From Streptomyces albidus (ex Kaewkla and Franco 2022) (lineage in GTDB: Bacteria > Actinomycetota > Actinomycetes > Streptomycetales > Streptomycetaceae): a stretch of 64,000 bases of DNA. The DNA lies in assembly GCF_013870515.1 (NCBI RefSeq), contig NZ_JACBXA010000001.1, positions 1-64,000 of the forward strand, in the 5' to 3' direction. Shown here one piece after another: positions 35,432 to 46,666 of the stretch. A model generated the notes under the pieces. It saw only the letters and a list, made by a program, of their open reading frames with translations. It was not told the DNA's origin and did no database searches. Within the stretch, counting starts at the first letter, position 1. The number at the start of each line of letters is the position of its first letter. The position numbers and the translations under genes were made by a program.

Positions 35432-38400
35432 TCACCCCTCGTTCGCCGCCGCGATCCTGATGTAGCGCCGGAGGACCGCGAACCAGCCGTGGGCCAGTTC
35501 CTCCACCTCTTCGTCGGGAACCACTCCGGCCGGCCACGTCCATCGAGCCGCCAGCCGTGGGCCGCCCTCCCGTTCCTCGACGGCGACCGTCAGCGCCAGC
35601 GCACGGTTGAACCCCATCTCCAGGTCCGCTCCCCCGCCCATCGCGGACCCGGCCTCCCCCGTGGGCTCCCAGTAGCCGGCCCCGTCCCCGACCCGGAAGC
35701 GCCCGAGATAGTTGAGCGCGATCTCCGGGTCGCCGAGTGGGGCCAGGCGGGCGGCCGTTTCGGGATTCAGATACCGCAGCAGTCCGTATCCGATGCCGTG
35801 GTCGGGCAGGGCCGCCAGCTGGGCGCCGACGCTCTGGGCCGCCTCGGACAGCCATGCGCCCTCGTCCTCGACGGCTGCGGCAGGCGTCCCGGCGGCGAGC
35901 AGCATTGGGAACTGAGCGGTGAACCAGCCGACGGTGGAGAAGGGTTCGTGCTCCCCGGCGACCGCCTCACGCCCGTGCGCCTGGAGATCCACCAACACCC
36001 CGTCGCCGCCGTGCAGTCGCCCCCAGGCGATCGCGAACGCGGCGTACAGCACCTCGCGCAGGCCCGTTTCCAGTCGGTGCGGGACGCCGAGGAGGCTTCG
36101 CGTCTCCTCCTCGGACATGTCGAGTGCGAGCCCGCGCGCCGACGCGAGCGTGTCCGCCGACCGGTCGAGCGCCCGGCGCCCCGGTCTCGTCGCCCCGGAG
36201 GCGAACATCCTTTCCCACAAGGGCAGTTCAGCCACGCGAGCCGGCTCGGCGGCCTCCTCGGCGAGCAGCCGCGCCCACCGCCGGTACGTCACGGAAGTCT
36301 CCGCCGGCGTCGGACGTTCGCCCGCGGCCACGGACTCGTAGGCGCGGGCCAGGTCGGCCAGAAGGATCCGCCAGGAGACCCCGTCCACTGCCAGGTGGTG
36401 CACGAGGGTCAGCAGACGGCCCTCGCGTCCCGCCCCGGGGTCGAGCCAGACCGCCGACAGCATCTGCCCTGTGTCGGGGTCGAGTTCACGCTGCCGGCGT
36501 TCGGTCGCAGAGCGCAGCGCCCGCTGCCACTCGTCGTGCGTGGACGCGTCTGCCGGCTCGCGCGAGAAGTGGTCGGCGGCCTTCACGGACCCGGGCGGGG
36601 TCGTCTCCAGTGACCACGCCTCAAGGCCACCGCCCTCCGGGGCCCTGCGGGTCAGGCGTATCCGGAGTGCGTCGTGGTGGTCGATGACCGTCTGCAGGGC
36701 CTCGACCAGATGGTCCGGCTCGACGTCCCCGGGCAGGCGCACCGCCATCGACAGGTGGTAAGCGTCCACGGCGGTCGCTTCCTGCCGCAGCCGCTCGATG
36801 ATCGGGGTGGCCGGGAACGGGCCGACGCCGTCCGCGAGTTGGTCTCCTCGGCCGGGTACGGAGTTGTCGTCAGGGCCGACCGGGCCGACGCACTCGGCTG
36901 ATTCCGCGGCTTCGGCTCCCCCGGCGGCTTCGACTGCTTCGGCGAGCGCGGCGACCGTCCGCTTCTCCAGCACGTCCCGCGGCCTCAGCGCGACGCCCTT
37001 CCGGCGGGCGAGGTCCACGAACCTCATGGACGTGATGCTGTCGCCGCCCATCAGGAAGAAGTCGTCATCGACGCCGAGCTGCGGCACGCCCAGCGTCTGG
37101 GCCATCACGGTGCACAAGGTCCTCTCCAGGGACGTGCGAGGTGCGGACCCGGTGGAGACGGCGGCGTAGTCCGGGGCAGGCAGGGCGCTACGGTCCAGCT
37201 TGCCGTTGACGGTGAGGGGCAGCTCGGGCACCGTCACGAACGCCGAGGGCACCATGTGGCCCGGCAGACGGTCCCCCGCCAGGGCGGACAGTTCGGCCGC
37301 GCCGGGCAGAGCGGCGCCGTCCGCAGCCACCAGGTAGGCGACCAGCTTCGGCTCGCCGGGCCGGTCCTCGCGCAGCGTGACCGCCGCCTGGCCGACCTCC
37401 GGCAGGCCGCTCAAGTGGGCCTCGATCTCGCCCAGTTCGACTCGGAAGCCGCGCAGCTGCACCTGTCCGTCCGACCGGCCCTCGTAGAACAGCTCACCGT
37501 CGAAGGCGCGGCGGGCGAGGTCCCCCGTCCGGTACATGCGCTCTCCGGGAGGGCCGAACGGATCGGCGACGAAGCGTGCCGCTGTCAGCCCGGGCCGCCC
37601 CGTGTAGCCGCGGGCCAGGCCGGGGCCGGCGACGTAGACCTCGCCGACGGTCCCGGGTGGGACCGGCCGCAGCCAGCGGTCGAGGACATAGGTACGCAGG
37701 TCCGTCAGCGGCCGGCCGATGCGGCTCTCCGAAGAGCTCTCTGTCACGTCCTGCCCGCTGATCGCGGTGTGGGTGACGTGGACGGTCGTCTCGGTGATGC
37801 CGTACATGTTGGCCAGCCGGGGAGCGTCCTGCGGATGGCGTGCGTACCACTCCCCCAGCGGGCCGAAGTCCAGCCGCTCACCGCCGAAGACGACGTGACG
37901 CAGCGCCAGGCGGTCGCCCAGGGCGGGCCTGGCGCGGTCGGCGCGCACCAGCTGACGGAACGCCGAGGGCGTCTGGCTGAGCACGGTGACGCCCCGCTCC
38001 ACGAGGAGTTCCAGGAAGCGTTCCGGGTCGCGCGTGACCTCGTGCGGCACGACCACGAGGGTCCCGCCGTGCAGCAGTGCTCCCCACATCTCCCACACCG
38101 AGAAGTCGAACGCGTAGGAGTGGAAGAGGGTCCACACGTCGCTCTCCCCGAAGGAGAAGAGCTCCTCGACGGAGGTGAAGAGCCTGACGACGTTCGCATG
38201 CGGGACCAGCACCCCCTTCGGACGTCCGGTGGAACCGGAGGTGTAGATGATGTACGCGCCGTGCTCAGCGGTGAGCGGTGCGGCGCGCTCTGCGTCGACG
38301 AGGTCGGCGTCATGGGCAGCGACGTCGTCGGGCGCTGCGGCGCTGCCCGCGCGTGGGCCCTCAGCATGGGCGTCGGACTCAGGCCCGGCCCCGGTGTCGG

Positions 38401-44400: not shown

Positions 44401-46666
44401 GAGTGGCGCAGACGGTCGCCTCGGTCGGGCCGTATCCGTTGACGAGGGTGATGCCCGGCGCCCAGTCGGCCGCCATCCCGGCCGTGCAGGCCTCGCCCCC
44501 CACCAGCAGCGTCGTACCGGTGGGCAGCGAGCCCGGCTCGACGGTGGCCAGGACGGCGGGTGGCACCAGCGCATGTGTCACGCCGTGGTCCGCGATCAGT
44601 TCCGCCAGTGAGGCACCCACCGGCGGCTCTCCTCCCGCGCCGACTATCAGCTCACCGCCGCCGAGCAGTGCGGCCAGCAACTCCCAGACGGCGGCGTCGA
44701 AACTGGGCGACGCCAGCTGAAGCACCCGGGAGCGGGGGCCGACGCCCCACCGGCTCTGTTGTGCCCGGGCGAGTCCGGGTATCCCCTCGTGCGTGACGAC
44801 GACGCCCTTGGGGCGGCCGGTGGAGCCGGAGGTGTAGATGACGTAGGCGGGATGACGCACGGTGAGCCGGCACGGGCGCTCCTCGTCCCGCACGTCGCCG
44901 TCGCTTCGCTCCGCCAGATCGTCAGCCACCTCTGGCGCGTCCAGCACGAGAGCACCGGCGGGAAGCGGGCCGTCGCACATGGCGAGTGAGGCGCGCGTCG
45001 TCAGTGTCACGGACGGCGCGGCGTCGCCGAGCATGAACGCGGTACGCAGACGCGGATACCGGGGGTCCACCGGGAGCCAGGCACCGCCTGCCTTCCACAC
45101 GGCGAGGACCGAGATCACGAACTCGACGGAACGCTCCATCACCAGAGCGACGATCCGTTCGGGGCCCACGCCTCGCGAGAGCAGAAGCCGCGCCAGGCGG
45201 TTGGCCCGCCGGTTGAGGGAGTCGTACGACAGGCACTCATCGGCCCCGAGGAGTGCCGCGGCGGAGGGCCGGCGTGCCACGGTCTGTTCGAAGAGGGCCG
45301 CCGCGGTTGCTTCGGGAGCCGCGCCCCCCAGTGCGAGCTGCAGGTCTCTCTCCGCGGCGGAGACCAGCGGCAGCCGTCCGACCTCGGTGCCGGCTCCTTC
45401 GTCGAGGACGTGCCGCAGCAACCGCTCGACGCGGCCCAGGTGCTCCCGCACGTCACGTTTCTCGTAGAGGGCGGTGTTCGCGTCGAGGTCGACTGTGAGA
45501 CCACGGCCGTCCTTGCGGTCCGTGAACGAGACCGACACGTCATCGACGGGCCCTGTGGCCAGGTTCCGCACGCGTGCCGGGCAAGGCCCGAAGGCCAGCT
45601 CCCGGTCGAAGGACATGATGTTCACGACGAGGGAGTACAGCGGCGGCGGGTTCTCACCCGGGCTCGTCCGGCGCATGTCCTCCATGCGGTACCGCTGGTG
45701 GGGCAGCGCGGCGGCCACGGCGCGTTCGGCCTGGCGTGCCAGTTCTGCCAGCGGCCGGGCGTCGTGCGGACGCAGCCTGATCGGGAGGACGTTGGACTGT
45801 GCTGCCGCAGTGGCGCGGGCCAGGGGCGTGCGCCGCGCCGCGACGACCAGTCCGACCGTCACCTCGTTCGCGTCGGTCATCCGGTACTGGTACGCGGCCG
45901 ACAGCGCCAGCAGCATCGACGAGCGGCGCACCCCGATTCCCGCACAGACCTCGTCGAGCTTGCGGCACTCCCCCGCGCCCAGCCCGGCCGAGGCGCGGGT
46001 GAACCCCTCGTACGGGGCTCGTCGCCGGGCCAGTGACGACGGCTCGGGCAGCTCCCGCAGCTGCTCGGTCCAGAACTTCCGGTCCTGCGCGAACGATTCG
46101 GACTCGCGGTAGTCGCAGTCCTCCTCCAGAAGCGCCCAGAGATCGCCGAAGCCGTGCGCGGGCACCGGCCCGCCCGCCTCCAGCGCGGAGTACACCTCCG
46201 CGCAGCGCCGCACGATCCCTGCCAGGGACGTCCCGTCGACGACGACGTGGTGGCAGCGGCAGCTCCACAGATACGTGTCGGCGGACAACCGCAGCAGCGC
46301 GAAATTGAAGAGCGGCCCGTTCCCGAAGGGCACGACGCGGTCCATGTCTTCGGACATCCAGCGGTGCGCGGCGGCCGTCGGATCGTCGGCGTCGCGCAGG
46401 TCGACGTGAGTGAGGGGCACGTCGCGGTGATCCACGGCGAAGAGACGCATCGCCTCGCCGGCCGGTGAGAAGCCGAGGTTCAGCGTCTCGCACTCGGAGA
46501 CCGTGCGGCGCAGGGCACGTTCGAAGAGGTCGATGCGCAGGCGTCCCCGGATCTCGACGTACTCGCCGACGCTGTACATCGCGCTGTCGGGACGCAGCGA
46601 CTGCGCGAGCCAGATCTCCCGTTGCGCGGCGGACGGTCCGATACGCATGCTTTCGCCACCAGGCAC
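35432..46666 (-). CDS. Non-ribosomal peptide synthetase, C-A-T / C-T-E / C-A-T-E
   Basis: 3,744 residues from GTG 46666 (ATG 46648 also possible). Domains: C1 1-440 (HHVVVDG, His139; EntF-like start [10 protein letters not shown]); A1 455-965; T1 Ser999; C2 1076-1510 (HHILLDG, His1214); an acidic linker of about 65 residues; T2 Ser1610; E1 1665-2110 (HHLCVDG, His1819); C3 2178-2620 (His2314); A2 2655-3150; T3 Ser3210; E2 3275-3744 (His3423). No A domain lies between C2 and T2, and there is no thioesterase. By eye against GrsA, the A1 code is D-A-W-L-L-G-G-V-C (hydrophobic) and A2 is D-F-W-S-V-G-M-V-H (Thr-like). The product may be acyl or aryl-X1-D-X2-D-Thr, handed to another protein. Confidence 0.95.

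What the first reader, a model, noticed from the sequence alone, without database searches (positions are those of the whole stretch)
35432..46666. NRPS with an internal module lacking its adenylation domain
Between C2 (ends about residue 1510) and T2 (Ser1610) only an acidic linker of about 65 residues is present, where an A domain of about 500 residues should be. C2, T2 and E1 keep their active-site motifs (HHILLDG, GGDSI, HHLCVDG). The frame is continuous, so this is not simple decay. T2 must be charged in trans by A1, A2 or a separate A domain, or reloaded across modules, and the residue is then epimerized. A C-T-E module of this kind in a single orphan NRPS is uncommon.
Basis: partly seen in the sequence, partly recalled or inferred. 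Interest (0 to 1): 0.7.

Follow-up and report, generated by a model that had tools for sequence, protein, structure and literature searches.

The report
Peptide synthetase missing one loading domain
A large bacterial peptide-making enzyme has one station with no loading domain of its own, most likely served by the neighbouring station's loader, a trick already described in other antibiotic-making enzymes.

Summary
The 3744-residue NRPS reads C1-A1-T1-C2-T2-E1-C3-A2-T3-E2. Between C2 and T2 lies only a 76-residue acidic linker without an A-domain match, mostly predicted disordered and found once in the draft genome, which argues against an assembly collapse.

The chain has no release domain.

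The kind is known. A review describes mannopeptimycin synthetase as C-A-T-E-C-A-T-C-T-E with one A serving two T domains; CmnA-A1 was shown to load the A-less module CmnI. Two fetched clusters carry A-T-C-T-E; one keeps a relic of the lost A. A1 scores best, by a small margin, against the A of the other.

Most likely A1 charges T1 and T2, E1 sets the second residue to D, and Thr (predicted) follows as D-Thr. Loading by a stand-alone A or by A2, or a dead module, are not excluded. No ortholog was seen in 120 congeneric genomes; function is untested.

The parts
35432..46666 (-). whole NRPS gene, 3744 aa from GTG at 46666
   Evidence: Pfam; own profiles
45347..46642 (-). C1, N-terminal C domain; its clade of 14 fetched C domains holds 12 that open their frame; NCBIfam matches MxcG and EntF over C1-A1-T1, both below their cut-offs
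43820..45328 (-). A1, code DAWLLGGVCK, substrate not assigned
43559..43783 (-). T1, GGDSI, Ser999
42173..43495 (-). C2, HHILLDG; in the clade of E-preceded (DCL) C domains although T1 precedes it directly
41945..42172 (-). acidic 76-residue linker where an A domain would be; no A-domain relic; 65 residues of it predicted disordered
   Evidence: no second copy in the draft genome
41717..41944 (-). T2, GGDSI, Ser1610, carrier without its own A domain
40247..41713 (-). E1, HHLCVDG
38852..40189 (-). C3, E-preceded (DCL) clade
37172..38803 (-). A2, code DFWSVGMVHK, predicted Thr
   Evidence: same code listed as Thr in PMC8399532 Table 3 (passage)
36923..37153 (-). T3, GGDSI, Ser3210
35462..36850 (-). 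E2, last domain; no thioesterase or other release domain follows in the chain

Best explanation
The enzyme is an NRPS with an A-less C-T-E module of the kind described for mannopeptimycin. A1 activates one amino acid X and loads it on its own T1 and, across C2, on T2. C2 joins X(T1) to X(T2), E1 turns the second X to D, C3 passes the dipeptide to Thr loaded by A2 on T3, and E2 turns Thr to D, giving (acyl?)-X-D-X-D-Thr on T3. The residue on T1 either reaches C2 as D (D-X loaded directly, or epimerised by something else) or C2 has lost its strict preference. Shown: domain order, absence of A, motifs kept, clade of C2. Inferred: every loading and condensation step, residue X, release.
For: The order A1-T1-C2-T2-E1 equals the A-T-C-T-E end of mannopeptimycin synthetase, whose second A is said to offer the same monomer to both following T domains (PMC8949500 passage). 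Two fetched clusters share A-T-C-T-E, L049 and L074. A1's best-scoring A domain among the loci then held is the A of L049's A-T-C-T-E, 487 bits; the next are another A of the same L049 protein, 469, and an A of the own genome's C442 cluster, 465. One A loading a second, A-less module was shown for CmnA-A1 and CmnI (PMC12400406 passages). C2, T2 and E1 keep their motifs; C2 and T2 fold confidently for the most part in the model. On contig C1 the only TIGR01733 matches at E 1e-10 are A1 and A2.
Against: No loading was tested. The lead of the L049 A domain over the next ones is small. C2 is in the E-preceded clade, while the A-less C domains of L049 and L074 are in the T-preceded clade, so the parallel is incomplete. 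L049 and L074 have a beta-lactamase-fold gene just before the NRPS; none was found among the 39 window ORFs scanned. No ortholog was seen, so there is no sign of selection on this arrangement beyond the open frame. A stand-alone A-T and a stand-alone A exist in the genome. Direct loading of D-X has a counter-example: the first A of a vancomycin-type synthetase prefers L-Leu to D-Leu 6:1 though its C is in the DCL subtree (PMC1894796 passage).
Confidence: 0.5

Rival explanations
1. T2 is charged in trans by a stand-alone A domain coded elsewhere, as SyrB1 does for the A-less ninth module of syringomycin synthetase.
For: 13 A domains in the genome pass the TIGR01733 cut-off; two are stand-alone: an A-T protein on contig C290 and an A protein on contig C457. 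The review describes SyrB1, and stand-alone A-T proteins that complement a missing or inactive A domain in ramoplanin and enduracidin synthesis (PMC8949500 passages). Further A-like genes under the cut-off (27 rows) were not excluded as loaders.
Against: Neither stand-alone gene is on the window's contig. The C290 A-T lies beside what I read by eye as a P450 and a type II thioesterase, a set that by general knowledge makes its own hydroxylated building block (recalled). The C457 A follows a ketosynthase-like gene (read by eye). I did not look for a SyrC-like aminoacyltransferase.
Confidence: 0.17
2. A2 (predicted Thr) loads both T2 and T3, giving X-D-Thr-D-Thr.
For: A2 is in the same protein and its code is that of Thr.
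Against: A2 lies downstream of T2, across E1 and C3; in the described mannopeptimycin case the A upstream serves both T domains.
Confidence: 0.11
3. The module is a decayed or skipped remnant: T2 is never loaded, or the chain on T1 is simply handed on, and the gene makes a shorter peptide or nothing.
For: Missing E, missing A, no release domain in the chain, no NRPS accessory gene recognised among 39 scanned window ORFs, no ortholog seen, linker with base use by codon position unlike the domains.
Against: Open frame of 3744 codons, coding-type base use in all ten domains, all C, T and E active-site motifs kept.
Confidence: 0.17
4. Assembly artefact: an A domain was lost by collapse of repeated NRPS DNA.
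For: The draft has 496 contigs and NRPS genes on C474, C207 and C194 break at contig ends.
Against: No second copy of the linker DNA was found in the genome; a collapse between two A domains would leave a chimeric A, not an unrelated acidic linker in frame.
Confidence: 0.04

Closest known systems
Mannopeptimycin synthetase [C-A-T-E-C-A-T-C-T-E]
   Same: C-A-T-C-T-E run with one A for two T domains (as described in PMC8949500, passage)
   Different: Here C2 is in the E-preceded clade; in the two fetched A-T-C-T-E clusters the C is in the T-preceded clade (the mannopeptimycin protein itself was not in hand). No beta-lactamase-fold gene, NRPS partner or mannosyl-transfer gene recognised among the 39 window ORFs scanned.
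CmnI with CmnA-A1 (capreomycin), VioI with VioA-A2 (viomycin)
   Same: A-less module loaded by the A domain of another module: shown for CmnI, suggested for VioI (PMC12400406 passages)
   Different: There the A-less module is a separate protein; here it is internal and carries an E domain. That CmnI has no E is recalled; the passages speak of its C and T only.
Syringomycin (SyrB1), ramoplanin, enduracidin
   Same: A module without a working A, served by a stand-alone A-T protein (PMC8949500 passages; for the latter two the passage speaks of an inactive A)
   Different: No stand-alone A over the TIGR01733 cut-off on the window's contig.
Vancomycin-type glycopeptide synthetases
   Same: T directly followed by a C of the DCL subtree with no E between (PMC1894796 passages). 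Of the 15 fetched T-preceded C domains in this clade, 9 are the first C of A-T-C-A-T-E proteins that I take to be glycopeptide synthetases (naming from recall)
   Different: Those modules have their own A domains.

Membership tests
NRPS with an A-less internal module | C and T present with no A between | tested here: met
NRPS with an A-less internal module | active-site motifs of C and T kept | tested here: met
Mannopeptimycin-type A-T-C-T-E unit | domain order A-T-C-T-E in one chain | tested here: met
   description
Mannopeptimycin-type A-T-C-T-E unit | upstream A loads both T domains with the same residue | not testable with these tools
   needs protein biochemistry
Mannopeptimycin-type A-T-C-T-E unit | C between the two T domains of the T-preceded (LCL) clade, as in L049 and L074 (whether this defines the kind is open) | tested here: not met
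   AU test against placing C2 there p 0.026
Mannopeptimycin-type gene cluster | beta-lactamase-fold release enzyme and mannosyl-transfer genes nearby | tested here: not met
   39 of the window's ORFs scanned with Pfam; not every ORF; such genes lie beside L049
SyrB1-type trans loading | stand-alone A or A-T gene in the cluster | tested here: not met
   on contig C1 only A1 and A2 match TIGR01733 at E 1e-10
CmnI-type A-less module | A of another module binds and loads the T | not testable with these tools
   needs binding assays and mass spectrometry

The most novel reading that the evidence does not exclude
A domain-sharing pair of modules: A1 and E1 each serve both T1 and T2. A1 loads X on both carriers, E1 epimerises X on T1 as well as on T2, and the DCL-type C2 joins them, so that one A and one E write a D-X-D-X unit. 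This would explain the missing E before a DCL-type C2 and the missing A after it by one principle. Nothing here excludes it and nothing here shows it.
Probability: 0.1. Interest if true: 0.6.

Novelty: new member of a known kind. Interest (0 to 1): 0.3.

Why it matters
If A1 serves both carriers, the gene is a compact, single-chain model for how one A domain reaches two carriers, and for whether a DCL-type C can work without an E before it. It also warns against product prediction by counting A domains: this chain may add three residues with two A domains. The basic trick is already described, so the gain is a further example with an unusual stereochemical wiring.

Tried and rejected
Looked for an A-domain relic in the linker: none at E up to 5, whereas L074 has one. 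Looked for orthologs: none seen in 60 relatives, 36 of them congeneric, nor in 120 congeneric genomes, where at E 1e-35 three other genomes gave only T-E stretches of 47-54% identity. Both searches scored a capped number of candidates per genome (at most 35 and 17), so a missed ortholog is possible.

A hit in G019 that seemed to run from C into T without A was fetched and is not A-less: the profiles show C-A-T; rejected.

T1's GGDSI as a sign of a lost E: rejected as evidence, since 71 of 143 fetched T domains followed by C also have GDSI, against 243 of 263 followed by E. A1 substrate: not assigned; a literature search for six code fragments gave one paper, seen in the listing only. A partner NRPS for the terminal E2: in the 12 own-genome stretches annotated the one chain that opens with a C whose best profile is C3 already follows another NRPS on C442; the other contigs were not annotated.

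Recalled, from no call: the GrsA anchors used to extract codes (the ten positions are also in PMC8399532 Table 3); the reading of A-T-C-A-T-E proteins as glycopeptide synthetases; SurE/MppK as the family of the beta-lactamase-fold genes beside L049 and L074; the P450 plus A-T pattern. P450, type II thioesterase, ribosomal genes and ketosynthase on C290 and C457 were named by eye from translations, not by a profile search. The original mannopeptimycin paper is not held; I rely on the review passage.

Fetched and not used: L129 and L130; L120 only scanned with my profiles. My first count of A-less junctions (and the notebook) mixed in own-genome loci; one search is the corrected count.
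Full report
WHAT IS THERE. The gene at 46666-35432 on the minus strand is one open frame of 3744 codons. Pfam finds five C/E-type stretches, two A domains with their C-terminal parts and three T domains. Profiles built from the window's own domains and their relatives give C1 9-440, A1 447-949, T1 962-1036, C2 1058-1498, T2 1575-1650, E1 1652-2140, C3 2160-2605, A2 2622-3165, T3 3172-3248, E2 3273-3735. The chain ends nine residues after E2, without a thioesterase.

THE GAP. C2 and T2 are 76 residues apart. The linker holds 17 Glu, 3 Asp, 11 Pro and 8 Arg and has no A-domain match at E up to 5. 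Its G+C by codon position (0.87/0.55/0.82) differs from the ten domains, in which position 3 is highest. In the AlphaFold2 model (mean pLDDT 75.9, pTM 0.63, alignment of only six rows) residues 1510-1574 are under 50, T2 is mostly above 90, and C2 is mostly confident with three short weak stretches. C2, T2 and E1 keep HHILLDG, GGDSI and HHLCVDG. A 301-bp stretch around the linker has no second match in the draft genome (40 of 139 candidates scored), which speaks against a collapse of repeats; other NRPS genes of this 496-contig draft do break at contig ends, and I had no reads.

A SECOND GAP. In a FastTree tree of 736 C and E domains, five of them the window's, one clade (support 0.92) holds C2, C3 and all 219 fetched C domains that follow an E, but only 15 of the 138 that follow a T. 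It also holds 33 of 104 C domains that open their frame. A smaller maximum-likelihood tree of 82 domains (IQ-TREE, quick search) agrees: 26 of 26 sampled E-preceded C domains with C2 and C3 in a clade of 44 (98% SH-aLRT), against a clade of 30 with 22 of 26 sampled T-preceded ones (97%); the tool warned of some long branches, C1 of the window among them. Forcing C2 into the second clade costs 37 log units, p 0.026. So C2 is of the kind that takes a D-residue from an upstream E (DCL), but T1 precedes it with no E. Of the 15 T-preceded members of the clade, nine are the first C of A-T-C-A-T-E proteins of Amycolatopsis, Kibdelosporangium, Kutzneria and Actinoplanes, which I take for glycopeptide synthetases, four are Nocardia proteins whose relative in N. 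paucivorans has the E, and two are single cases. Rausch and others describe this for glycopeptides: all their C domains fall in the DCL subtree, two of six clearly have LCL activity, and the residue of the first module has to become D by unknown means since its A prefers L-Leu (PMC1894796, passages). Clade membership therefore does not prove that C2 needs a D-donor.

SURROUNDINGS. I scanned 39 window ORFs with Pfam (chosen by length and G+C by codon position from the 152, not all). None is an NRPS, an MbtH protein or a beta-lactamase-fold enzyme. Alpha/beta hydrolases are present (19904-21076, 21331-22122, 50469-52043) and a role in release cannot be excluded, though none lies next to the NRPS. 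Nearest genes: DUF2637 protein, GH75 chitosanase-like and a Drr-type ABC transporter below; glutaredoxin-like, SAM-methyltransferase, carboxylesterase and LLM oxidoreductase above. The genome has two MbtH genes, on contigs C442 and C131. It has 13 A domains over the TIGR01733 cut-off: six on C442, two here, one each on C194, C207, C474, C290 and C457; 27 more rows are under the cut-off. The last two over the cut-off are stand-alone: an A-T protein of 607 aa beside what reads as a P450 and a type II thioesterase, next to ribosomal protein genes, and an A protein of 524 aa after a ketosynthase-like gene (read by eye).

RELATIVES. Among 440 C-A or C-T junctions in non-own fetched loci, 5 lack A: L049, L074, L009 (two) and L048 (the loci were picked by likeness to this protein, so this is no unbiased rate). 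L049 (Solihabitans fulvus) and L074 (Saccharothrix algeriensis) have A-T-C-T-E as here. In both the C is of the T-preceded clade. Both have a beta-lactamase-fold gene before the NRPS, and L049 has GtrA/GT2 and PMT-type genes, as I would expect of a mannopeptimycin-like cluster. L074 keeps an AMP-binding_C relic in its C-T linker (35.1 bits, cut-off 24.5), so that module arose by loss of most of an A domain; the window's linker has no such trace. A1 scores best against the A-T-C-T-E A domain of L049 (487 bits; next 469, from the same protein, and 465, from the own genome). Extracted codes: A1 DAWLLGGVCK, A2 DFWSVGMVHK, L049 DALLIGAVVK, L074 DALLVGAVVK followed by a Thr-like DFWNIGMVHK. DFWSVGMVHK is listed as Thr in PMC8399532 Table 3 (passage).

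ORTHOLOGS. None seen in 60 relatives or in 120 congeneric genomes, with a capped number of candidates scored per genome; three larger searches failed. The C1 type is widespread at lower identity.

HOW IT LIKELY WORKS. I hold it most likely (0.5) that A1 loads T1 and T2, as the review PMC8949500 says for mannopeptimycin (passage) and as was shown for CmnA-A1 and CmnI (PMC12400406 passages). E1 then sets residue 2 to D, Thr is added and epimerised. What comes to C2 from T1 is the open point: D-X, or L-X with a relaxed C2. How the chain leaves T3 is unknown. Stand-alone A domains, A2, or a dead module are real rivals.

NOVELTY. The arrangement is a new member of a known kind. A search for the written domain order found one paper, the review (eight literature searches in all). 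The combination of no A after, and no E before, a DCL-type C was not found in the fetched loci: of the five A-less C domains, two follow an E, two follow a T but are of the T-preceded clade, and one opens its frame. That is a small sample and I claim no more than that.

Noticed in passing
L074:7850-8230: A-less C-T-E module of Saccharothrix algeriensis retains an AMP-binding_C relic in its linker, evidence that such modules arise by deletion within an A domain.
   Followed up: partly
window 35432-35462: The NRPS ends right after E2 with no thioesterase; three alpha/beta-hydrolase genes lie in the window but none next to it; release is unexplained.
   Followed up: partly
L126:109-4263 (own genome, contig C290): Stand-alone A-T protein between what read by eye as a type II thioesterase and a P450, beside ribosomal protein and elongation factor genes.
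   Followed up: no
L127:8300-11871 (own genome, contig C457): Ketosynthase-like protein (by eye) followed by a stand-alone amino-acid A domain over the TIGR01733 cut-off.
   Followed up: no
L011, L012, L038, L076 versus L029: Nocardia NRPSs C-A-T-C-A-T-C whose relative in N. paucivorans is C-A-T-E-C-A-T-C: apparent loss or gain of an E domain before the same DCL-type C.
   Followed up: partly
L009:2-29733: Streptomyces sp. CB03234 has two neighbouring NRPS frames, one ending and one beginning with an A-less C-T-E module.
   Followed up: no
window 31255-34021: GH75 chitosanase-like protein directly after a Drr-type ABC transporter gene.
   Followed up: no
window 41945-42172: The linker codes with G+C highest at codon position 1 rather than 3, unlike the ten domains of the protein.
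   Followed up: no
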